32,952 nucleotides of DNA, taken from Candidatus Kerfeldbacteria bacterium. Its GTDB lineage: Bacteria; Patescibacteriota; Patescibacteriia; SBBC01; CAIJZX01. The stretch covers positions 1 through 32,952 of the forward strand of contig CAIJZX010000027.1 in the NCBI GenBank assembly GCA_903825245.1. The letters are read 5' to 3'. Shown piece by piece: positions 9,674-27,123 of this stretch. Numbering within the stretch: position 1 is the first letter of the stretch; the number at the start of each line of letters is the position of its first letter. The notes beneath the pieces were generated by a model. It was not told the origin of the DNA and did not search any database. It saw only the letters and a list, made by a program, of their open reading frames with translations. The translations under genes and the position numbers were made by a program.

Positions 9674-10669
9674 ATGGAACAGCAGACGCAGATTCAAGAA
9701 AAAACCCGAACGCACATCTCGCAAGCGGTCGGTATTGCGCTGATTACCGCCGCTGGTGCGTTTGGTGCGGCGGCATTTTTACTATTTGGTGCGGTAAAAC
9801 AACCGGTCAGCACAACCCAAGTAACGACTGCAAAAGAGTCGGCCATCGCAATAGCGCCGGATCTGAGTAAAGATGCCCTACCAACAAAAGAAATGTTGGT
9901 CACCGGTGCGATGCCGGCGACGGTAACGAGCAGCACTGTGTCAGTTGTCATCACTTCGCCGAAAGAAGGCGCAGCAGTGAACGGTGATGCGTCGTTGAGC
10001 GTTAGTCTGAACGATCCAAATCATGAAACCACCGCCGTTCGCGTTTTACTCTATGGTGACCTGTTACCGGCCTATATGCAAGGCGTCTCGATGGGCATTA
10101 AAACAACGGCCCCGTACACATTCAGCTCGAACTTAGGTATGTACAAGAGCGGTGAGTATCGCTATGTGGCTCAAGCTGTTAAGCCAAACACCGACCCGAA
10201 CCGAACGGATGATTGGACTGTAGTAGCTTCGACCGATACCATGGTGACGTGGGTGCGTAGCTGTTACTGGCTTGCCTATCAGGGCATGACACTCACCGCG
10301 CCAACGTCTTCGGTTACAGCCGGTACGACATTCACGGTAACCGGAACTCTAACGAACCCAAACCGAGGTAGTTGTCCGCACATCTACGACCTTTCGACAA
10401 CGAACCCCATCGGTTTAACCTCATGGTTGCCAAGCGGTTGGATCGCTACGGTCACGCCATCACAAATGACTATGGGCATTAACGAGACGAAGACGTACTC
10501 CATGACCGTTACGGTTCCAGCAAACACACCTGCCGGCAAATACGGCATCGGCGTTTCGTCCACACTGGAATCCACCGGATTTATCGCGTCACCACAGGCA
10601 ACCGTCACGGTTGTTGCACCAGGCGGCGGTGGCGGCAAACGAGAAATTCCTGTTGGGGGGACACAATAA
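9674..10669 (+). CDS. Hypothetical single-TM surface protein with Ig-like domains
   Basis: N-terminal TM, VVITSPKEGAAVNGDASLSVSLNDPNHETTAVRVLLYGD (Ig-like), LTAPTSSVTAGTTFTVTGTLTNPNRGSCPH; followed at once by a terminator. Confidence 0.7.
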   Translation: MEQQTQIQEKTRTHISQAVGIALITAAGAFGAAAFLLFGAVKQPVSTTQVTTAKESAIAIAPDLSKDALPTKEMLVTGAMPATVTSSTVSVVITSPKEGAAVNGDASLSVSLNDPNHETTAVRVLLYGDLLPAYMQGVSMGIKTTAPYTFSSNLGMYKSGEYRYVAQAVKPNTDPNRTDDWTVVASTDTMVTWVRSCYWLAYQGMTLTAPTSSVTAGTTFTVTGTLTNPNRGSCPHIYDLSTTNPIGLTSWLPSGWIATVTPSQMTMGINETKTYSMTVTVPANTPAGKYGIGVSSTLESTGFIASPQATVTVVAPGGGGGKREIPVGGTQ

Positions 10670-14359: not shown

Positions 14360-14410
14360 GTGAGGTGGTGTTTAGGTAGCTGCAATAGTATACAGTAAAT
14401 AGCCGGGGAT

Positions 14411-14438
14411 GAAAAAACCGCCTGGTGGGTGGTGCTTT
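14411..14438 (-). terminator. Terminator downstream of the 14527-14847 gene (repeat element copy D)
   Basis: Minus: caccacccaccaggcggttttttc. Confidence 0.6.
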
Positions 14439-14526
14439 GAGAAGAGACACATTGTCCCTGCCTACCGGCAGGCAGACCCACCGCTACTCGTCCCTGGGTT
14501 GCCGCGGATGAACCGCGTTGTTTTCA

Positions 14527-14847
14527 TTACTCCTCAATCTTCAGGCGCCCACTAAGGCTTGGGTATTCTTCGGTATATCTCCGTAAATGTCTTCGTTTGG
14601 TGGAATCAGCATCGCCCTCAACAATTATTCCGCCCTTACCATCGTTGCGAGGATAAAATTGCCTAAAAAAATCCTTGTGCACATCAAAAATTTTACGGTC
14701 TTCATCCGTAGCTGCAAAAGTAATCATGAAATGTTTTGTGTCTAGGGTTTCAGCAACTGGCTCTTGGGCTTCAATTCCCAGTTCTCGGGGATCGATTCCT
14801 TGTTCAGGTCCAAATGGTGTCATAGAAGCACTTTTAATGAATACCAT
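14527..14847 (-). CDS. Hypothetical protein, 106 aa
   Basis: ORF followed by a terminator; start may be MTPFG at 14823. Confidence 0.55.
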   Translation of the reverse strand: MVFIKSASMTPFGPEQGIDPRELGIEAQEPVAETLDTKHFMITFAATDEDRKIFDVHKDFFRQFYPRNDGKGGIIVEGDADSTKRRHLRRYTEEYPSLSGRLKIEE

Positions 14848-14956
14848 TACGTTAGTGCTTCAAGACTCACATGTCAAGAGAGGTGGGATTGCCCACTGTA
14901 TTCCACCGATCACGACCAATTGGTTTCTGCCTGAAAGTAGACTAGTAACTCGTGAT

Positions 14957-14984
14957 AAAAAAGACTGCTCTTGCGAACAGATTT
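14957..14984 (-). terminator. Terminator downstream of the 15049 gene (repeat element copy A)
   Basis: Minus: ctgttc-gcaa-gagcag-tcttttttatc. Confidence 0.7.
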
Positions 14985-15048
14985 TGGAAGAGAAACATGA
15001 TCCCCGCCAGTTACTTGTTTCTCGCGAACGCTGTCCTTTCTATAGTAG

Positions 15049-15846
15049 TTAAAAATTACAAAGTGCTTTAAAATCTGATGTAGAAAATTGATTGCAAAAA
15101 CTGTGTGCGAAGGCAGGATCTCTTTTTACTATGTATAAGCTTGAAAAACGATTGTCTGCTGCGTTTGTTATGATTGACCAAAGGCATTCATCGTGTGCTT
15201 GGGGATCGATTATTTTTTGACAGGCCGACGTAGCTTCTGACATACAGAATTGTCGCTGTGACACATTCTCTTGATACACCGAGGCACCTACCATATTGTC
15301 AGTCAGGCAAGTATTTAATTCCAAAGCAGTTTGTTGGGACGATAAAAAAACTTTATGAACGCATGTTTTCCAATCCCCAGATATTGCCGGGGTGTTTAAT
15401 ATATTACAATCCGTTACGCCATTCGGGTATGTAGTTGCCCTATCCTTCGTCTCATTAAATTGTACTTGCTGTTGATTACGTTCTTTGGTGGAAATTTGCA
15501 GACTATGGATTGCACGATATGTAAGAACTCCAAGGATAAGCACTAAAAGAACGAAGAAGATGGTTGTAACTATTCGTAATGAGCGAAGACGTTGAATGCG
15601 TCGCCGTGGGTCAGGATCTATCGATATGGAGTGGCCAATGTTGTGCATTACCACAATCATACCAAGGCCCAAAACGATACCTATTGGCTCATAAACAAAC
15701 ACCGCCCAGGAATCTGCAAACAGTGGCGCAAGCAGAAAAACCAAAAAAATTATTGTTGCCGGGATTATCCCAATATTTGTACTTTTTTTCTGTTGTGCGT
15801 TGTTCGACTCCATATGATAACAGTTTAACATAGACGCTTTAACCAC
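15049..15846 (-). CDS. Hypothetical membrane protein (about three TM segments, Cys-containing extracytoplasmic domain)
   Basis: TM segments IGIIPATIIFLVFLLAPLFADSWAVFVY, IGIVLGLGMIVVM, IVTTIFFVLLVLILGVLTY. Start uncertain (MLNCYH or MESNN). Confidence 0.6.
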   Translation of the reverse strand: MVKASMLNCYHMESNNAQQKKSTNIGIIPATIIFLVFLLAPLFADSWAVFVYEPIGIVLGLGMIVVMHNIGHSISIDPDPRRRIQRLRSLRIVTTIFFVLLVLILGVLTYRAIHSLQISTKERNQQQVQFNETKDRATTYPNGVTDCNILNTPAISGDWKTCVHKVFLSSQQTALELNTCLTDNMVGASVYQENVSQRQFCMSEATSACQKIIDPQAHDECLWSIITNAADNRFSSLYIVKRDPAFAHSFCNQFSTSDFKALCNF

Positions 15847-15888
15847 CCTAATTCCTGCCCGAAAGTAGGCTAACGCTTTTTTGTAAAA

Positions 15889-15913
15889 ACAAAAACTGTC
15901 CTTTCGGACAGAC
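15889..15913 (-). terminator. Terminator (repeat element copy B)
   Basis: Minus: tctgtcc-gaaa-ggacag-tttttgttttt. Confidence 0.7.
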
Positions 15914-15948
15914 TTTGGAAGAGTAACATTGTCCCCGCGGCCTACACT

Positions 15949-16050
15949 GGATAATTCGGCTCCTCGCGTTGCTGCGGTGCAACGAATTATCCGTCTTCGA
16001 CCGCCGAGAGCAAAGCAGTTTGCTCTCTGACCGCTGGTGCGGTCGCGGTC
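15949..16050. ncRNA. Candidate structured RNA between repeat copies B and C
   Basis: Stems ggataattcg/cgaattatcc, agagcaaa-gcag-tttgctct, gaccgc/gcggtc; no coding ORF; followed by a terminator on the minus strand. Confidence 0.4.
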
Positions 16051-16101
16051 TCGACCCTTCGGAAAGTAGGCCGTCGCTACCTGTGCGGTAGTACAGAAAA
16101 T

Positions 16102-16130
16102 AAAAACGCCACCGTGATGGTGGTGTCTTT
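16102..16130 (-). terminator. 5S rRNA terminator (repeat element copy C)
   Basis: Minus: caccaccatcacggtggcgtttttatttt, about 20 nt after the 5S 3' end. Confidence 0.75.
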
Positions 16131-16147
16131 AGAAGAGTAACATTGTC

Positions 16148-16260
16148 CCCGCGACGGCCTACTTTCCCCCCGACATGCATCGGAGTATCATCGGCGCTAA
16201 CGGGCTTAACGACTGTGTTCGGGATGGGAACAGGTGTGACCCCGCCGCTCGAATCACGGA
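16148..16260 (-). rRNA. 5S ribosomal RNA
   Basis: Minus: ...gcggcggggtcacacctgttcccatcccgaacacagtcgttaagcccgttagcgccgatgatact...gaaagtagg; terminal helix CCGTGAT/GTCGCGG. Confidence 0.95.
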
Positions 16261-16292
16261 GACGATATGACCCTTCTCTGAAGCGAAACTGA

Positions 16293-16409: not shown

Positions 16410-16780
16410 ACGTAATATCAAGGTAGCACAATTCGCCAGTTCGCGCAAGCCGTTTACCGGTCTTTGGCGCTGGTGGTTCTGGTCCAGTACACTCGTTCCC
16501 AAACAACATATCAGAACTCGACTGATTAGTACGGCTCGGCTACATGCATTACTGCACTTCCACCTGCCGCCTATCGACCAGGTTATCTCCCTGGAGTCTG
16601 ATAATGAAATCTCATCTTGAAGTCGGCTTCACGCTTAGATGCTTTCAGCGTTTATCCATACTAAACGTTGCTACCGGGCGATGCTCCTGGTGGAACAGCC
16701 CGTACACAAGAGGTTTATTCTTTCCGGTCCTCTCGTACTAGGAAAGAGTCTTCTCAGATTTCGACGCCCACAGTAGATAG

Positions 16781-16817
<37 letters not shown>

Positions 16818-16892
16818 ACGTACCGCTTTAATTGGCGAACAGCCAAACCCTTGGGGCCTTCTCCAGTCCCAGGATGCGATGAGCCGACATCG

Positions 16893-17205
16893 TACTTTGA
16901 TCCATATTTTCGTATGGCGTAGACTATATCTTTTTCCTGTCCTCCGTTGTAGCTCTTCGATAAACTCAGAGCATGACGTGAGTGTTAATGACAGGACTCG
17001 GCGTATTACCTTCTCATCAGTAACTTCTTGTGCAGAGAAAGTCTCTTCTTTCGAATCAGTCGTTACGGGGTTATACATATTACTATGTAAACTTCCCACG
17101 GTATTGCCCGCCTATTCTCTATACCACTGAATAGGGTAGGGGTTCACCGTTATAAGCCGATATTTCTTTGGAATGGAATCACTTCCATTGCACCCCAATG
17201 TGTTA
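16893..17205 (-). other. Putative group I intron in 23S at the E. coli U2500 position (L2500), about 313 nt, no evident ORF
   Basis: Splits GGCACCU|CGAUGUCGG; P1 GCACCU/GGGUGC with terminal U.G; possible P10 CGAU/AUUG; S-like element aaaaagatatagtct; P7 partner AACGACT. Confidence 0.8.
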
Positions 17206-17728
17206 AGGTGCCAAACCTCCTCGTCGATGTGGACTCTTGGAGGAGATCAGCCTGTTATCCCCGGAGTAACTTTTGTCCGTTGAGCTTCGACGCGCCTATG
17301 TGCGATCGTCGGATCACTAACTTCGACTTTCGTCCCTGCTCGACTTGTAGGTCTTGCAGTCAAGCCAGCATATGGGTTTGCCCTACCGGTTGGGTTTCCA
17401 TTCCAACCTAGCTGACCTTTGTAAACGCCTCCGTTACATTTTAGGAGGCAACCGCCCCAGTTAAACTACCCACCAGACACTGTCCCCTATACCGGATAAC
17501 GGTACGGGGTTAGCATTCACAATCCATGAAGGTGGTATCTCATATTGCGACTCCATCCCGGCCAGAACCGGAACTTCGAAGTCTCCCACCTATGCTCAGT
17601 ACACGGATCGTGAAGGCAATGCCAAGTTATAGTAAAGCTTCACGGGGTCTTTTCGTCTAACTGTGGGTAACGAGCATCTTTACTCGTCTTGTAATTTCGC
17701 CGAGTCCCTCGTTGAGAGAGTCGTCAAC

Positions 17729-17778
<50 letters not shown>

Positions 17779-18388
17779 CATTGTGCTGGGCGAGACAACC
17801 TACGGTTTTCTCGTCCCACGCCACTCTTTCCCTTTCTTGTGTCGCCACTGGTCGCTGCAGCGAAAGTAAATTTCGCTTCGCGCCTGCGTGCTCGACCCGT
17901 CTTTGCTTTGTGCGGCGCTGGCTATCGCTGTGCGCCGCTTGGGGGAGTGTACAATTGGACTATATCTTCACCCGATATTTCTATTGAGGGTGCTTGGCGT
18001 GTAGTCTCTACGGGGTCAGATCGAAACTGGGAGAAGGGGAGAACCGATATTTTGGTTCTCCGGAAAGAGCGGAGGGGTGGGACGATGTTTTGTCCGTACA
18101 GTCGTGCTGGTAACACGAGCTATAACCGACGTTGCGGGCGTCAGTGGCGTCTCTGGAAAAATTCACAGGACTGCCTCACCCCCTCCTTCTCTCAGTTTCG
18201 ATCGACTTCCCTCGGTGTTGACGCTGTTCAGCGGTTTCACCGATATAGCCGAGTATTATTTTTGAGGACCATCATCACATTACTGTGATACGAGGCAGTT
18301 ACTATTCCTTACTGCACTCTCTATATCAACCTCTGACTTGCTACAACCGTCTCTAGTCCTTCGCCACACGACATGTGTCATGTGGCAA
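17779..18388 (-). other. Putative group I intron in 23S at the E. coli U1931 position (L1931), about 610 nt, no recognisable homing endonuclease
   Basis: Splits CCUAAGGU|AGCGAAAUUCC; R element gtagagactacacgcc; S element gaagatatagtcc; ends in G. Confidence 0.88.
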
Positions 18389-19168
18389 ACCTTAGGACGG
18401 TTATAGTTACCGCCGGCGTTCATCAGCGCTTCAGATCAAGGCTTTCACCTCTCCCTTTAACGTTCTGACACTGGCCAGGCATCAGCCCCTATACATCAGC
18501 TTGCGCTTTCGCAGGGACCTAAGTTTTTGGTAAACAGTCGGTTGACGTCATTTATTGCAGCCCATCTTGCGATGGGCAGGCCATGTACCGAAGGTACGGC
18601 CACTGTTTTGCCGAGTTCCTAAACGAGGGTTCTCTCGTACGCCTTGGCAGATTTGCTGCCCATCCACCTGTGTCGGTTTACGGTACGGGGACGCCATGAC
18701 GTGAACTTGAAGCTTTTCTCGGCCCACTCTTTTCCTACATTGGTTCGCCCTTGCGGGTTTACCTGCGCCTTGCGGCTGGTTCATAACCAAAGAACCAGTA
18801 GAATCCGAGCATGCGTCACTTCAAGGATAATCATGTCGTCGTGCAGGAATATTAACCTGCTGTCCATCAGCTACGCCTTTCGGCCTCACCTTAGGCCCGA
18901 CTCACCCTGGGTCGATCTGCGTTGCCCAGGAAACCTTGGATTTACGGCGAGCGGGGTTCTCACCCGCTGTTGTGCTACTTATACCTACATTCTCACGTCC
19001 GTACGCTCCACGATGAGTCGCCTCTGTCGCTTCTGCGCATACGGAACGCTCCGCTACCACTCATGAGTCATCGCTGACTCACAAATCCTCAGCTTCGGTA
19101 CGATGCTTGAGCCCCGATACATTTTCGGCGCCCTGCGACTTGACCAGTGAGCTGTTACGCTTTCTTTA

Positions 19169-19199
<31 letters not shown>

Positions 19200-19817
19200 T
19201 TGTTTGAGTCGCGAGACTGCCTTTAACACTGAGCATCGATTTAGGGACCTTAGCTGGAGGTCTGGGTTCTTCCCCTCACGTCCGGTGGAGCTTAGCCCCC
19301 ACGGACTGACTGCCATACTTAATTCCACGGCATTCGGAGTTTGGTTGGAATTGCTAGTCTTGCGACACGCAGTCCCATTCAGTGCTCTACCACCATGGAG
19401 AAACATATGACGCTAGTCCAAAAACTATTTCGCGGAGAACCAGCTATCGCCGAGTTCGATTGGAATTTCTCCTCTACCCTCAACTCATCCCAGAGCGTTG
19501 CACGACTCACGGGTTCGGACCTCCACGGCATTTTACTGCCGCTTCATCCTGGTCAAGGGTAGCTCACCCGGCTTCGGGTCTGTTCTGGCCCACGGGCTCA
19601 GGCGTGAGTGTGACGACGTCTTTCGACACCGCCAAACTCACACAAGAGCAAGCGCCACTGAAGGCTCGCTTTCACTACGACTCCGGTCTAAGACGACCTT
19701 AGTCTACGTGGGACACAACAACTCGTAGGTTCATTCTTCAATAGGCACGCCGCAACTCTTTCGAGCCGCGACTGCTTGTAAGCGTATGGTTTCAGATACT
19801 ATTTCATTCCCCTCACC

Positions 19818-19860
<43 letters not shown>

Positions 19861-21398
19861 ATCACCAATGATATTTAGTCTTGGGAGGCTAGTCCTCCCG
19901 GCTTCTCACAGGATTTCACGAGTCCCGTGGTACTTGAGGAAAGTAACCAGTAAAGCTTTTGAGGGTCCATTTCGTCTACCGGGCTATCACCGTCTGTGGC
20001 AGGTCTTTCCAGACCGCTTCGACTATGGACTGGTCAAACCACTATCCGACGACCCCACCGTCACCTCCCCTCGAATGAGGGGAGGAGCGGGGAGGGGTAC
20101 GGATAATAATTCAACATGCGCTCTACTCCTAGAATCACAAGCTCTAGACGTTACGATCTCGCAACCCTCACTATATATACGGTCTTGTGAACCTTTCTCC
20201 CTTGCGGAAGAAACAATGTAAGTTTAGACTGTTCCCGTTTCGCTCGCCACTACTCAGGGAATATTGTCACCCTTGCGGGTGACGGACTTTTTTTCTGTTC
20301 CTCGAGCTACTAAGATGTTTCAGTTCGCTCGGTGCACTCCACATGCTCTATATATTCAAGCATGGGTACTATGGAATTTCTGCCATAGTGGGTTACCCCA
20401 TTCGGACATCCCCGGATCACAGGTTGGTTGCCACCTCCCCGAGGCTTTTCGCAGGCTCCGACGTCCTTCATCGCTCATTGGTGTCAAGGCATTCACCATA
20501 CGCCCTTCTTGTTCTCATATATTGTCGAGATATAACTTTGCTTTTAAGGGCAAAATTACAGTTTCGAGTGTCTGTAACCAGAACCATCAACGTCATATTG
20601 TTGATCGGTTCTAATTTCGATTTGATGCGTTACCTTTATTCGGTTGTCAATTTGCGAGATTAACATCACTAGGAGAGGTACGAATTCGAGGTCGTACGCC
20701 TTGATAGTGGAGTCAATGAAATTGAAAGTACAGTTGGTAGCCCGCGTCGAGGGCACATGGTTTGTGGTACTGGCTAGGGTTCCACGGAGGCCCATGTGCA
20801 CACTCGGCGCGGGAATGTAGTACTCCGGAGGGAGCGCCGTAGTCGTATGAAGCACGATGGGCCGGTTACAGCTATTGCCCGCGACATACGAACGCTCCGC
20901 ACCGGAGCTTTTTTCCTGCGCCCCAGACCGAGCGTGCAGTTTTGGGATAGCAGGACAATGGTGGGGATCCCGTGGCGTTTCATCAGGATGTGCCTGATGC
21001 CTTGACGCGCTCGAGTCGGGCACGTATGGATGCGCGCGAGACCCCCGATATAGGTGTGAAGAACAAAGTGGTGAGACAACCCTTCGACAGGCTCAGGATT
21101 ATCTATCCGCTTCGTGCTTCTGATTTTTTGTAAGGTGCAAATGAGACTGAAAAACCGCCCGATCGGCGGCTCCGGAAACGCAGGGCAGTAACGACAGGCC
21201 CTATGAGCCGACGACGATCTCCTTTCTAAGACTGTTCTGCATCAATTTGAGGTAAATGTTGAAGTTATTTTGCCCATTGGTGGGCAGGACGTAGGGTACA
21301 TGAATTCCGAGATAACGTCAAGGGAATGACGGGGACAAGATGGGGAGAGAAAAACATATTGCATAATTATTAAAAAATGTGTTATAATACACATATAT

Positions 21399-23432
21399 AT
21401 GGAGCTTATTGTTAAGAATCCTCTATGGAGGATGGGTGTCGCCGGTTTAGGGTTGTTTTTTGCTTTTTCAGTAACCGCAAGTAGGAACAACACGGTATCG
21501 GCTCAATCGGTGGTGGACATTACCGGGTGTCAAGACATTACGAGCTCTGGATCATATCGCATCGCAAACAATATTTCAGTCACCGATCCGACGGACGGTG
21601 CCTGTCTTATTATAAAAGCAAATAACGTTACGCTGAATGGGAACAATAAGTCGATCACCATCACGAATAAAAATTGGACCTCAATGGCGCTTGATGTTCG
21701 TGATTTGCCGGATAGTAATTGGGTATATAGTAATTGGCACGATATTTCCGTCAGTAATTTTTCTTCTAACGCTGATGTTCGGACATACGGCAACGGCGTG
21801 AATCACGTACTCTTCGACCATCTCACAGTTTCAGCAATCAATGTGTTGGGAAGCGACGATGTCACGATGAGTAACAATACCGTTGGTGAGGGCGGCATAC
21901 AAGTAAACGATAGTGATACGATCGGTTGGAACCCATTTCGTCCTATAATCACCGGCAACACGATTACTGGTGGGGCGACTAATGTTAAAGTATTGATGGA
22001 GATCTGGGGGGATAATATACATCCTTGTCCTCGTTTAGATGCGGTGGTGACAAACAATACGATTACCGACACACGAAATGATGTGCCGCAGGAGGCAAAC
22101 GCTGCGGTCCGCATTCGTTGTGCCACGCATACGACATTCACTGGCAACACCATTCATTCGACGGGGACGACCATTGGACTCTACATGCGTGATGAGTCAG
22201 ATGACGGCGTATATGAGAACAATACTATTTGGTCGCACGACAATGAAACGCACCGCATATCGAGTGGTAATGGTGATAAGACGTGTCCGGCAAGGAATGT
22301 CTTTCGAAATAATATCTTTCGGTCTGATAACGTATCCACCACCTATTTTCAGTGTCTTAGTCAGGGAAATATCTGGACGCAGAATTATTTTTGGGGTGCT
22401 TCCGGCGGGTTAGCATTCATCAGTGGAGCGTTTGGATCAACCTTTGACCATAATACATTTTATGTCTCGAGCACGGGATCATACGTGCAGTTGAGCTATC
22501 GTAACGCTTCGCCACCAGATAGCTGGACCAATAATATTTTTAGCTATACAGGAACGTCGCTTTTCGATTATGACGGTTGGGTGGGGTCACCGTATATTGG
22601 TAACCATAATCTGTTTCAGAATCGAGCGGGCGTCGTCGCGTTTGGAGACCGCGGTGCGTCTTTGTCTGCCTGGAAAACAAATAACGGTCAGGACGCGGCT
22701 TCAATCGAAGCGAATCCGCAATTCACCAATGCGGCGAATGGCGACTTCTCTCTCCAAGCCGGATCACCGGCACTGAACGCCGCAAGCGACGGGACGAATA
22801 TCGGCGCTTGGCAAACAAGCAGCTGCACGAGCGCCTGGACATGTGATGCCTGGCAAACATGCCAAAGCAATAATACTCAAACCAGAACCTGTCACGATGC
22901 TAATACCTGCCAACCACCAACCAATCAACCAGCACTGACCCAAAGTTGTGATGGTACAGCACCGACGGTGAGCATCACTGCTCCAGCCAACGCCGCTACG
23001 GTCTCTGAAACCGTATCCGTCACTGCGACCGCCAGCGATAATATTGGCGTGGTTGGCGTCCAGTTTACACTCGATGGCACAAACCTAGGTAGCGAAGACA
23101 CCGTGGCGCCATATAGTACGAGCTGGAATACGACGACTACGACCAATGCCTCGCACACACTAACGGCGGTGGCGCGAGATGCGGCCGGACAAACAACGAC
23201 AGCAATCACCGTTACCGTAACGGTCAATAATGTTGTCGCGTGCGTAGAAGACTGGATGACGATTCCCTGTAGCGGCTGGTCTGGTTGCGACAAAATCTCA
23301 CACACCCAATCACGAACCTGCACCGATAATCACCACTGCGGCACCTTCGTCAATCAACCAGTGTTGAGTCAGGGGTGTACCGCGCAAGATTCAACAGCGC
23401 CGTCGGCTGTGGGTAACCTACAAGCGAAGTAG
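21399..23432 (+). CDS. Secreted right-handed beta-helix protein with TSP1-like and Ig-like C-terminal modules (paralog 1)
   Basis: N-terminal TM/signal; repeated N-N-T-I/ITGNTI ladder (NosD/PbH1-like); WTCDAWQTCQSNNTQTRTC; PTVSITAPANAATVSETVSVTATASDNIGVVGVQFTLDG. Confidence 0.85.
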   Translation: MELIVKNPLWRMGVAGLGLFFAFSVTASRNNTVSAQSVVDITGCQDITSSGSYRIANNISVTDPTDGACLIIKANNVTLNGNNKSITITNKNWTSMALDVRDLPDSNWVYSNWHDISVSNFSSNADVRTYGNGVNHVLFDHLTVSAINVLGSDDVTMSNNTVGEGGIQVNDSDTIGWNPFRPIITGNTITGGATNVKVLMEIWGDNIHPCPRLDAVVTNNTITDTRNDVPQEANAAVRIRCATHTTFTGNTIHSTGTTIGLYMRDESDDGVYENNTIWSHDNETHRISSGNGDKTCPARNVFRNNIFRSDNVSTTYFQCLSQGNIWTQNYFWGASGGLAFISGAFGSTFDHNTFYVSSTGSYVQLSYRNASPPDSWTNNIFSYTGTSLFDYDGWVGSPYIGNHNLFQNRAGVVAFGDRGASLSAWKTNNGQDAASIEANPQFTNAANGDFSLQAGSPALNAASDGTNIGAWQTSSCTSAWTCDAWQTCQSNNTQTRTCHDANTCQPPTNQPALTQSCDGTAPTVSITAPANAATVSETVSVTATASDNIGVVGVQFTLDGTNLGSEDTVAPYSTSWNTTTTTNASHTLTAVARDAAGQTTTAITVTVTVNNVVACVEDWMTIPCSGWSGCDKISHTQSRTCTDNHHCGTFVNQPVLSQGCTAQDSTAPSAVGNLQAK

Positions 23433-23464
23433 CTGAGGTTTGCAGTGTAGTATGTACTGTCTAT

Positions 23465-25495
23465 ATGAACAAGCGATTTCTTTTTCTTCTAGCAGGCGGA
23501 CTGGTAATAACAACCATTTTTTTTCATCGCCGGGTATCGGCGCAATCCGTGATTGATCTCACGGAATGCCAGCACATCACCACTAGCGGGAGTTACCGTT
23601 TAGCGAAAGATGTTTCAGATCCTTCTACTATTAATACTAACACCCCAAGCATCGGATATTGTTTCTCCATCCGGGCGGGAAATGTTACGTTTGACGGAAA
23701 CGGAAAGACGATTACCTCATCCACCGGGGAGGCTCTGGAGGTAGCGGATTTTTCAAATGATCAAAATGGATTTTCGAACGTTACGGTAAGTAATGTTGTC
23801 TCGAGCGGTGGCGTCCGTGCGTTTGGTGAAAACATCAACCACGTGACTTTCCAAAATTTACAGGTTGGCGGGATTGCGGATTATGGTTCTGATGACGTGA
23901 TCATTCACAACAATACCGTCGGTGAAGGTGGCATTCTTGTTAGTGACGACGATCGTGAATGGACGGCGTTCCGCGCAATCATTACTGGCAATACAGTTGC
24001 TGGGGGCTCAACAGACGTCAAAGTGCTTGTTGAAGTTGTTGGTGGACAAGTGCATCCGTGCCCGGAACTGGATACAATTATAACCGGTAATACGATTACT
24101 GACACCAGAAACGATCCGCCACCCGAGGCTACGGCGGCGGTGCGAGTTCGTTGCGCAACGCACACGACATTTACAAACAACACCATTCATTCCACCGGAT
24201 CTACGCTGGGTCTCTACCTGCGCGATGAATCCGATGATGGCACGTATGAGAATAATACATTTGTTACAAACAGTCGTCCGGCTCTCTGGATCGCGGCTGG
24301 GAATCCAGATAAAACCTACCCCTCTCGAAACACGTTTCGTAACAATGTCTTCCAGACAAACGACACCACTCCCACCGATCCAGACAACGGCTATCTGTAT
24401 TATGGTTTAGGCATCGGCAGCGGGAATATATTTAGCTATAACACGTTCATCTCGAAGAATTATTGGTTACTGGGACACGTTGGAAGTACCGGTGGAAACA
24501 CCTACAACCATAATACGTTCTATGCTTTCGGAAGCGGAATACTACAGAACCTCACCGGCGATACCACCGCTGGTCCACCAAGCGATACCTATACGAATAA
24601 TATCTTTAATTATTCTGGTGCGTCGGTATTCGGATATGATAAATGGCTAGCGTCGCGGTATTCTGGTAACCATAATTTATTTTACAACCGCGCCGGCGCC
24701 TTGTCTTTCGGTTCTTTTGGAACACTAGCGCAATGGCGGACGACAACCGGAAGCGATGCTGGCTCGATCAATATGGATCCAAAAATTACGGATGCTACGA
24801 ATGGTGACTTCTCTCTCCAAGCCGGATCACCGGCACTCAACACCGCCAGCGACGGTACGAATATCGGTGCCTGGCAAACCAGTAGTTGCACGAGTGCCTG
24901 GACGTGCGATCCGTGGCAAACATGCCAAAGTAATAATACCCAAACTAGAACCTGTCACGATGCTAATACCTGCCAACCACCAACAAATCAACCAGCACTG
25001 ACCCAAAGTTGTGACGGCACAGCACCGACGGTAAGTATTACTGCCCCGACAAATAACACTACCGTTTCTGGAACCGTATCCGCCACCGCCACCGCCAGTG
25101 ATAACGTTGGCGTCGTCGGCGTTCAATTCAAGCTTGATGGCACAAATCTGGGCAGTGAAGATACAGTGGTGCCATATAGCACAAGCTGGAACACCACCAC
25201 CGCAACCAATGCCTCGCACACACTAACAGCAGTGGCGCGTGATGCGGCTGGACACACAACCACAGCGTCAACCATCACGGTAACCGTCAACAATACTGTC
25301 GCGTGCGTAGAAGACTGGACGACGATTCCGTGCAGTGACTGGTCTGGCTGTGATAAAACCTCACGCACCCAATCACGAACCTGCACCGATAATCACCACT
25401 GTGGCACCTTCGTTAATCAACCGGTGTTGAGTCAGGGGTGCACCCTGCAAGACTCAACACAGCCATCGGCCGTCAGCGACCTCAAAGCAAAGTAG
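23465..25495 (+). CDS. Secreted right-handed beta-helix protein with TSP1-like and Ig-like C-terminal modules (paralog 2)
   Basis: Same architecture as the preceding gene, with very similar C-terminal third. Confidence 0.85.
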   Translation: MNKRFLFLLAGGLVITTIFFHRRVSAQSVIDLTECQHITTSGSYRLAKDVSDPSTINTNTPSIGYCFSIRAGNVTFDGNGKTITSSTGEALEVADFSNDQNGFSNVTVSNVVSSGGVRAFGENINHVTFQNLQVGGIADYGSDDVIIHNNTVGEGGILVSDDDREWTAFRAIITGNTVAGGSTDVKVLVEVVGGQVHPCPELDTIITGNTITDTRNDPPPEATAAVRVRCATHTTFTNNTIHSTGSTLGLYLRDESDDGTYENNTFVTNSRPALWIAAGNPDKTYPSRNTFRNNVFQTNDTTPTDPDNGYLYYGLGIGSGNIFSYNTFISKNYWLLGHVGSTGGNTYNHNTFYAFGSGILQNLTGDTTAGPPSDTYTNNIFNYSGASVFGYDKWLASRYSGNHNLFYNRAGALSFGSFGTLAQWRTTTGSDAGSINMDPKITDATNGDFSLQAGSPALNTASDGTNIGAWQTSSCTSAWTCDPWQTCQSNNTQTRTCHDANTCQPPTNQPALTQSCDGTAPTVSITAPTNNTTVSGTVSATATASDNVGVVGVQFKLDGTNLGSEDTVVPYSTSWNTTTATNASHTLTAVARDAAGHTTTASTITVTVNNTVACVEDWTTIPCSDWSGCDKTSRTQSRTCTDNHHCGTFVNQPVLSQGCTLQDSTQPSAVSDLKAK

Positions 25496-25527
25496 CTGAG
25501 GTTTGCGGTGTAGTATATACTGTCTGT

Positions 25528-27123
25528 GTGAACATGCGACATCTTTTTCTTCGAGCAGGCGGACTGGCAATCATTGTCAGCATTGTCTTAGTCGGGACGC
25601 ACAACGATACTGCCCGAGCCTTAGTGGTGACCGACCTGACGAGTTGTCGAGCGATCACGACGAATGGCAGTTATCGATTGCTGAACGCGGTGACGAGCGC
25701 TAGTGGTCCCTGTTTTCCCATTCGCAATAGTTCCGTGACGTCGCTGTTGTTTGATGGTAACGGAAAAACAATAACGGTTACGGACGGAAGCGCGGCTGTG
25801 GAGGAGGCAGACGTTGGTTCTGGTGCGCCGAGTAATGTGACCATAACGAACGTTGTCTCAACCGCCGGCATTCGGATCTACGGCGATAATATTAACCATA
25901 GCGTTGTGCAGAACTCAATTGTCGGTAGCATTGCCTCGGTGGGTGGCGACGACATTACTATCAGCGGCAATACCGTCGGCGCGGGTGGTATTCAAGTTAA
26001 CAACAACAACGGCATCTGGACGCCATATCGTACAGCTATATTGAGTAACACAGTTACCGGCGGATCGACGAGCGTTCCGTATCTTCTCGATGTGGTTGGT
26101 GGTGACACACATCCTTGTCCCAAACTTGATACTATTATTTCCGGAAACACATTTACCGACGCGCGCAATGATTCGCCGACTACGTCCACGGCGGCCACGA
26201 ACATCCACTGCGCAACGCACACGATATTTACGAACAACGTCATTCGTTCAACCGGTACCACGATTGGGTTGTCGCTCTTCGATGAGGCGGATAACGGCAC
26301 CTACGAGAATAATGTATTTTGGACGAACGATCACCCGGCACTGTTGATGGTTGCTGGGGGCGCGGATAAAACCTGGCCGTCGAATAACGCGTTTCACGCT
26401 AACGATTTTCGATCAGATGCGGATAATGTTTTTTATCTGTCTGGGATGGGCACCGAAAACACGTTCACCAATAATACGTTTTTTGCCAACAGCGCCTATA
26501 TTACCGGATATTATGGCGGACTATTCGGGAATAGTTGGGATCACAATACGTTTTATAATGCCGGGAGCGGTAGTTATAGTTTTTTCCTCAAAGGCGACTA
26601 TCAGCACGGCCCGCCGGCTGATATTTTCACTAACAATATTTTTAGTTATAGCGGCAACGTTATCTACATTTACGACGGTTGGGACAGTACGCGCTTTGTC
26701 GGAAGTAATAACTTGTATCAAAATCGTGCGGGGGTGGTAAGGTTTGGGTCGTATGGCGACCTTGAAGGATGGAAAAGCGCCAGCGGTCAAGACGACCAAT
26801 CGATCGAAGCGAATCCACTATTTACGAACCCATCACAAGGTGATTTTACTCTTCAGGCAACATCGCCGGCGCGCGATGCCGGTGTGAGTGGTGGAGATAT
26901 TGGAGCGTTTACCTATGGCACTCCGTCCCCGAGTGATTGTACTCCGCTGTGGTCATGTGGTGCCTGGAGCGCCTGTCTCAATGGTCAACAATCACGACGT
27001 TGCACCGATGCCCACTATTGTAAAACGGTGCTCAGCGAACCGGCGCTCATCCAGGTGTGCGGCACTAGCGCGGTCGTGGACACCCTCGCTCCCGCAGCCG
27101 TATCCAATCTTAGCGCGCAATAG
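25528..27123 (+). CDS. Secreted right-handed beta-helix protein (paralog 3, short C-terminus)
   Basis: GTG start: V/M-NMRHLFLRAGGLAII aligns with MNKRFLFLLAGGLVITT of paralog 2, and TATACT-N6-GTG. The track start at 25438 is too long. Confidence 0.85.
   Translation: MNMRHLFLRAGGLAIIVSIVLVGTHNDTARALVVTDLTSCRAITTNGSYRLLNAVTSASGPCFPIRNSSVTSLLFDGNGKTITVTDGSAAVEEADVGSGAPSNVTITNVVSTAGIRIYGDNINHSVVQNSIVGSIASVGGDDITISGNTVGAGGIQVNNNNGIWTPYRTAILSNTVTGGSTSVPYLLDVVGGDTHPCPKLDTIISGNTFTDARNDSPTTSTAATNIHCATHTIFTNNVIRSTGTTIGLSLFDEADNGTYENNVFWTNDHPALLMVAGGADKTWPSNNAFHANDFRSDADNVFYLSGMGTENTFTNNTFFANSAYITGYYGGLFGNSWDHNTFYNAGSGSYSFFLKGDYQHGPPADIFTNNIFSYSGNVIYIYDGWDSTRFVGSNNLYQNRAGVVRFGSYGDLEGWKSASGQDDQSIEANPLFTNPSQGDFTLQATSPARDAGVSGGDIGAFTYGTPSPSDCTPLWSCGAWSACLNGQQSRRCTDAHYCKTVLSEPALIQVCGTSAVVDTLAPAAVSNLSAQ

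What the first reader, a model, noticed from the sequence alone, without database searches (positions are those of the whole stretch)
14398..16167. Repeated terminator element with a conserved 22-mer and variable hairpin
On the minus strand, GGGGACAATGTTACTCTTCCAAAG (copies B and C), GGGGATCATGTTTCTCTTCCAAAA (A) and AGGGACAATGTGTCTCTTCTCAAAG (D) each precede a terminator whose stem differs in every copy. A-C have outer arms resembling inverted repeats: copy C has ggaaagtaggccgtcgc / gcgacggcctactttcc, perfect over 17 bp, which includes the 3' end of 5S. The 22-mer is conserved while the hairpin drifts, so it is probably the functional part (processing site, antitermination, or mobile unit). 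It follows 5S, two protein genes and the structured region below.
Basis: partly seen in the sequence, partly recalled or inferred. Interest (0 to 1): 0.78.

Follow-up and report, generated by a model that had tools for sequence, protein, structure and literature searches.

The report
5S tail copies around structured element
The repeated 22-letter motif is one arm of the hairpin that encloses the 5S ribosomal RNA gene; it was copied in part downstream, around a previously uncatalogued folded element that recurs beside tRNA genes across a class of tiny bacteria.

Summary
In detail: four related tails (C, B, A, D) lie downstream of 5S, far above chance, and C has a perfect 17-bp inverted repeat. 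The reading changes. In C the 22-mer is the 3' strand of the extended pre-5S helix I, pairing with 16253-16276 (-34.0 kcal/mol against -18.7 +- 3.4 shuffled); about 14 bp of this flanking stem covary in 93 Paceibacteria 5S loci. As a repeat it occurs nowhere else in the genome, so it is not a mobile unit by itself. B, A and D are partial copies of the 5S 3' end plus trailer and terminator, with no significant 5' arm of their own. Partial 5S copies recur in 12-14 of 94 loci. The 'structured region' between C and B (15949-16060) is a copy of an uncatalogued structured element, 'E': 9 copies in this genome, found in 62 of 384 class genomes, strong covariation, absent from Rfam. Eight of nine copies here lie within 90 nt of a tRNA or 5S gene, mostly inside a partial copy of that gene. 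At the 5S locus E is shared with another genus, with 12 double and no broken pair changes. E is probably a non-autonomous mobile structured element; its mobiliser and function are unknown.

The parts
16146..16261 (-). 5S rRNA gene
   Evidence: Rfam RF00001, 81.6 bits
16253..16276 (-). 5' arm of the extended pre-5S helix I (GAAGGGTCATATCGTCTCCGTGAT)
   Evidence: duplex with the C tail -34.0 kcal/mol vs -18.7 +- 3.4 shuffled; class-wide covariation
16127..16150 (-). copy C of the 22-mer: last bases of 5S plus 3' arm of the pre-5S stem
16109..16123 (-). terminator-like hairpin of copy C
16151..16167 (-). left arm of 17-bp inverted repeat = 5S 3' end GGAAAGTAGGCCGTCGC
16061..16077 (-). right arm of the inverted repeat; also left flank of element E, complementary to GTAGGCC at its right flank; CCTACTTTCC conserved in G001 and G003
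15949..16060 (-). element E: three-way junction (P1, hpA, hpB with AA-CUGC-UU loop) plus second hairpin domain
   Evidence: model R1 93.3 bits; covariation; orthologue in G003
15910..15945 (-). copy B: partial 5S 3' end (GTAGGCC..GCGGGGAC) plus trailer
15896..15911 (-). terminator-like hairpin of copy B
15049..15846 (-). ORF of 265 codons between B and A; in 242 class genomes only itself and two weak partial matches
14982..15005 (-). copy A of the 22-mer; arms AGTAACT (15015-15009) / AGTTACT (14950-14944)
14965..14980 (-). terminator-like hairpin of copy A
14527..14847 (-). ORF of 106 codons between A and D, no relative in 242 class genomes
14435..14459 (-). copy D of the 22-mer, followed by a weak CCACC/GGCGG hairpin and T-run

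Best explanation
The 5S gene lies inside a long terminal stem; the 22-mer of copy C is the 3' strand of that stem and is followed by an intrinsic terminator (pairing shown by covariation and energy; its role in processing is inferred). In many Paceibacteria the same stem plus a T-run appears to serve as the terminator itself. Copies B, A and D are partial duplicates of the 5S 3' end, trailer and terminator, each now ending a transcription unit (duplication shown by sequence; terminator function inferred). The B copy is what remains of a decayed 5S copy whose body is replaced by E, a roughly 105-nt structured element. E recurs across the class, mainly inside partial copies of tRNA genes lying beside the intact tRNA. 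The most likely account is that E is a non-autonomous mobile structured element, acting as RNA or as single-stranded DNA. It would settle in hairpin loops of structural RNA genes, with survival depending on an intact copy of the gene being retained next to it (inferred).
For: Pre-5S stem: for 14 positions beyond the 5S ends, 53-89% of 93 loci pair against 37-58% permuted, z 3.4-10; C duplex energy. Partial 5S copies downstream in 12-14 of 94 loci. E: 36 aligned matches (31 distinct), 95.2% of cells paired, 19 of 24 pairs with double changes, covariation 0.554 vs 0.184 +- 0.012 shuffled and at most 0.10 when slid. Nine copies in this genome, eight within 90 nt of a tRNA or 5S gene; the zone within 200 nt of such genes is 2.1% of the genome. 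Flanks of E match the neighbouring tRNA on both sides with adjoining coordinates: Pro t7-19/t17-56, Ile t7-19/t20-46, Gly t34-49/t54-72, Val t29-47/t49-77. 62 of 384 class genomes. Ten copies 91-100 of 102 identical at scattered sites in two genomes of one genus. E at the same 5S-locus site of another genus: 28 stem pairs, 16 same, 12 double, 0 broken.
Against: No transposase, integrase or reverse transcriptase was tied to E. Structure retained in place at the 5S locus would also fit a cis-acting RNA with a function there. B, A and D show no significant 5' arm of their own, so their conserved 22-mer is not explained by pairing. The 22-mer of B is retained in G003 although that genome's own 5S stem has changed. 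E is absent from G001's 5S locus and from most genomes.
Confidence: 0.72

Rival explanations
1. E is a cis-acting RNA of tRNA and 5S transcripts (maturation, stability or attenuation), kept by selection; the partial gene copies are part of its structure, offering alternative pairings to the tRNA or 5S 3' half.
For: Compensatory changes at the same site in two genera; proximity to tRNA and 5S genes; in G090 and G362 the T-arm of the intact tRNA itself reads as the 5' strand of E.
Against: Patchy presence (62 of 384 genomes), copy numbers of 1 to 16, different tRNAs in different genomes, near-identical scattered copies not beside tRNAs in G285.
Confidence: 0.3
2. Plain tandem duplication and decay: the array arose by slippage around hairpins and nothing in it is functional or mobile apart from 5S and its terminators.
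For: 22-mer restricted to this locus; partial 5S copies start at different 5S positions in different genomes; perfect inverted repeats are typical of template switching (own knowledge).
Against: Does not explain E's covariation, its dispersed copies, or its counterpart in another genus without a single broken pair.
Confidence: 0.15
3. A gene-cassette array (integron-like): each ORF followed by a recombination site.
For: Same-strand order 5S-C-E-B-ORF-A-ORF-D with orphan ORFs and inverted arms around each tail.
Against: The attC core motifs GTTRRRY and RYYYAAC occur only once each in 1.8 kb and not in the arms; none of 20 window ORFs scanned with Pfam is an integrase; the arms derive from the 5S 3' end.
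Confidence: 0.03
4. The 22-mer is a boxA/Nus-type antitermination or processing signal.
For: CTCTTCCAAA loosely resembles boxA; it lies in an rRNA operon.
Against: It lies downstream of 5S and is continuous with 5S helix I; relatives change it together with the 5' flank.
Confidence: 0.03

Closest known systems
Extended helix I of pre-5S rRNA (processing stem, for example the RNase M5 substrate of Bacillus; own knowledge)
   Same: 5S flanks pair beyond the mature ends
   Different: In many of the related genomes the stem runs straight into a T-run, so stem and terminator coincide; partial copies of its 3' arm lie downstream
MITE / REP / BIME-type dispersed palindromic repeats
   Same: Short, non-coding, folded, dispersed in several copies, near-identical in some genomes
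   Different: Three-way junction with conserved CUGC loop and strong covariation; mostly inside partial tRNA or 5S copies
[quoted passage not shown] 2025 preprint, cited in PMC12641178; not readable here)
   Same: Structured insertions in tRNA genes of the same phylum
   Different: E is about 105 nt, has no Rfam group I match, sits in partial tRNA copies beside the intact gene, at D-loop and variable-region positions
Integron attC cassettes
   Same: Array of single genes each followed by an inverted-repeat site
   Different: No attC core motifs in the arms and no integrase among the scanned ORFs

Membership tests
pre-5S terminal stem | 5' and 3' flanks of 5S complementary, with compensatory changes | tested here: met
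pre-5S terminal stem | cleaved to give mature 5S ends | not testable with these tools
   needs RNA ends
intrinsic terminator | G+C-rich hairpin followed by a T-run | tested here: met
   A, B and C flagged, D not
mobile/dispersed element (for E) | several similar copies at unrelated sites in one genome | tested here: met
mobile/dispersed element (for E) | empty versus filled site in close relatives | not tested
   no strain pair close enough was examined
mobile/dispersed element (for the 22-mer) | copies outside the 5S locus | tested here: not met
any Rfam family (including group I introns) | match of E to a covariance model of Rfam 15 | tested here: not met
integron cassette array | attC cores GTTRRRY / RYYYAAC at the element ends | tested here: not met
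integron cassette array | integron integrase in the genome | not tested
   only 20 window ORFs were scanned
boxA antitermination | boxA upstream of the RNA it protects, bound by NusB-S10 | not testable with these tools
   position downstream of 5S speaks against it

The most novel reading that the evidence does not exclude
E is a new class of non-autonomous mobile structured element in Paceibacteria that targets loops of tRNA and 5S genes, and whose insertions persist because a partial duplicate of the RNA gene takes the hit while the intact copy remains. The 5S locus of this window would be one such event, structurally maintained across genera.
Probability: 0.4. Interest if true: 0.82.

Novelty: new variant of a known kind. 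Interest (0 to 1): 0.62.

Why it matters
Patescibacteria have few ribonucleases and odd rRNA and tRNA genes. This gives a concrete, searchable structured element (model built, class-wide distribution sampled) tied to tRNA and 5S genes, and shows that about a third of the tRNA genes here stand beside fragments of themselves. It opens tests of how structural RNA genes are invaded, duplicated and processed in the candidate phyla radiation.

Tried and rejected
Rfam at permissive threshold on the locus and on eight E loci: nothing for E but chance-level scores below the curated cut-offs. 22-mer in viral contigs: one hit, in sequence without 5S resemblance. 22-mer pattern in 145 relatives: apart from this genome and G001 the hits lie in sequence without a 5S next to it. 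GTACC hairpin pattern as a class-wide repeat: only two genomes, both downstream of 5S. ORF265 and ORF106 as shared cargo: no convincing relatives. Own 5' arms for B, A, D: energies within about one standard deviation of shuffles. Integron: no cores in the arms. A first ungapped test of extended tRNA stems was too strict; the gapped one gave 12 of 53 against about 1% expected. Literature: eight searches found no description of E; the relevant preprint is not held.

Full report
OBSERVATION. On the minus strand downstream of 5S there are four related tails: C (16150-16127), B (15936-15913), A (15005-14982) and D (14459-14435). No shuffled window produced a comparable 24-mer match. A, B and C are followed by terminator-like hairpins. 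The 17-bp inverted repeat at C is exact. In the 1.30-Mb genome the pattern occurs as a repeat only here. The stems are not random: A and B share the hairpin type of the sister genome's 5S terminator, and C and D share another type that also occurs in the second unit of G001 and in copy B of G003. This mosaic suggests exchange between units.

WHAT THE 22-MER IS. Copy C starts inside 5S: GTCGCGGGGAC is the 3' strand of 5S helix I, and the following AATGTTACTCTTC continues the pairing with GAAGGGTCATATCGTCTCCGTGAT upstream of and into 5S. The duplex energy is -34.0 kcal/mol against -18.7 +- 3.4 for shuffles. I collected 5S genes with flanks from the class. In 93 loci, positions 0 to 13 beyond the 5S 3' end pair with their upstream partners in 53-89% of loci against 37-58% when partners are permuted, with several pair types at each position; pairing stops at position 14. 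In many relatives the extended stem runs directly into a T-run, so stem and terminator coincide. The organism belongs with Candidatus Kerfeldbacteria (record titles of two close relatives). That CPR bacteria keep RNase III, RNase J and PNPase is reported in PMC12641178, so RNase III cleavage of this stem is plausible but not shown.

WHAT COPIES B, A AND D ARE. B carries GTAGGCC..GCGGGGAC plus trailer, that is the 5S 3' end; A and D carry shorter remnants. None has a significant 5' arm. A search for partial copies of the 5S 3' part downstream of 5S flagged 14 of 94 loci, about 12 of them convincingly, starting at different 5S positions and nearly all within about 250 nt. Some are interrupted by hairpins. 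Partial 5S duplication downstream of 5S is therefore recurrent in this class. The two ORFs between B, A and D have no convincing relatives in 242 class genomes.

THE STRUCTURED REGION IS A DISPERSED ELEMENT. A DNA search with 15840-16152 found related stretches elsewhere in this genome and in relatives. They share GGGTCGAG, a stem P1, a variable hairpin hpA, a hairpin hpB with AA-CUGC-UU loop, CGAGACGG and a second hairpin domain. A covariance model found 9 copies in this genome, 16 in G002 and fewer in five other genomes of the order; a scan of all stretches of this genome gave the same nine. In 36 aligned matches (31 distinct rows) 95.2% of cells pair, 19 of 24 pairs show double changes, and the covariation score is 0.554 against 0.184 +- 0.012 shuffled and at most 0.10 when partners are slid. 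That alignment was fitted to the model, which favours the structure, but the RNAalifold fold of the first, MAFFT alignment already had 13 of 24 pairs with double changes. Rfam has no match. An improved model found E in 62 of 384 class genomes across many families.

WHERE E SITS. Eight of the nine copies here lie within 90 nt of a tRNA or 5S gene, while the zone within 200 nt of such genes is only 2.1% of the genome; the ninth is at a contig end. The flanks of E match the neighbouring tRNA with adjoining coordinates, at the D-loop (after about t19) or the variable region (about t47). In other families 16 of 23 loci examined have a tRNA within about 120 nt. Independently of E, about 16 of 52 tRNA genes here have partial copies of themselves beside them that score above every one of the roughly 1500 random windows: upstream copies are 5' pieces and downstream copies mostly 3' pieces, many ending in CCA. 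Twelve of 53 RNA genes have long complementary flanks against about 1% expected. In two genomes of one genus ten E copies are 91-100 of 102 identical at scattered intergenic sites, which points to recent spread.

E AT THE 5S LOCUS. G003, another genus of the family, has E at the same place with the same left flank GGCCTACTTTCCGAAGGGTCG. Between the two copies the four stems examined have 16 identical pairs, 12 double changes and no single or broken change (the helices were chosen by hand). Either selection keeps the structure in place or two different E copies occupied the same site.

MECHANISM, WITH STATUS. Shown: the pre-5S stem pairs; tails are 5S-derived; E is a covarying, dispersed structure beside tRNA and 5S genes. 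Inferred: processing of the stem, termination at the hairpins, mobility of E, preference for hairpin loops, survival of insertions because an intact gene copy remains. Unknown: the mobiliser, whether E is transcribed, and why the 22-mer of B is retained.

VERDICT. The finding as stated resolves into a known kind of feature, the pre-5S stem and its duplicated tail. The part worth pursuing is the neighbouring element E and the general pattern of RNA genes accompanied by fragments of themselves.

Noticed in passing
window 16507-20519: The 23S gene spans 4013 nt against a 2925-position model, so it carries about 1.1 kb of insertions without an Rfam intron match; the only 16S gene found is on another contig, C9.
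   Followed up: no
G000 tRNA genes, e.g. C13:43020-43420, C2:13080-13420: tRNA genes flanked by a 5' fragment upstream and a 3' fragment downstream; at tRNA-Arg(gcg) the outer fragments share a perfect extended stem enclosing the intact tRNA.
   Followed up: partly
L027 (G005), L043 (G195), L124 (G143), L092 (G094): 5S-like fragments downstream of 5S with hairpins of the form GTACC..GGTAC inserted; the exact pattern occurs in only two of 242 genomes, both downstream of 5S.
   Followed up: partly
L068/L289 (G002 contig C3): Several tandem 5S fragments with inserted hairpins, ending at a contig edge.
   Followed up: no
L301 (G162), L311 (G123): E lies directly after what reads as the end of the ribosomal protein L11 gene in two genera (gene named by eye).
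   Followed up: no
L306 (G090), L325 (G362): The T-arm of an intact tRNA appears to serve as the 5' strand of E, offering an alternative fold of the tRNA 3' half.
   Followed up: no
window 9674-10669, 21399-27123: Several large plus-strand proteins with Big_7 and/or DUF5123 domains around the 23S-5S locus.
   Followed up: no
window 21081-21097 and L314, L315, L318, L321: CCTGAGCYTGTCGAAGG palindromic repeat; in G285 E sits inside a pair of such arms.
   Followed up: no
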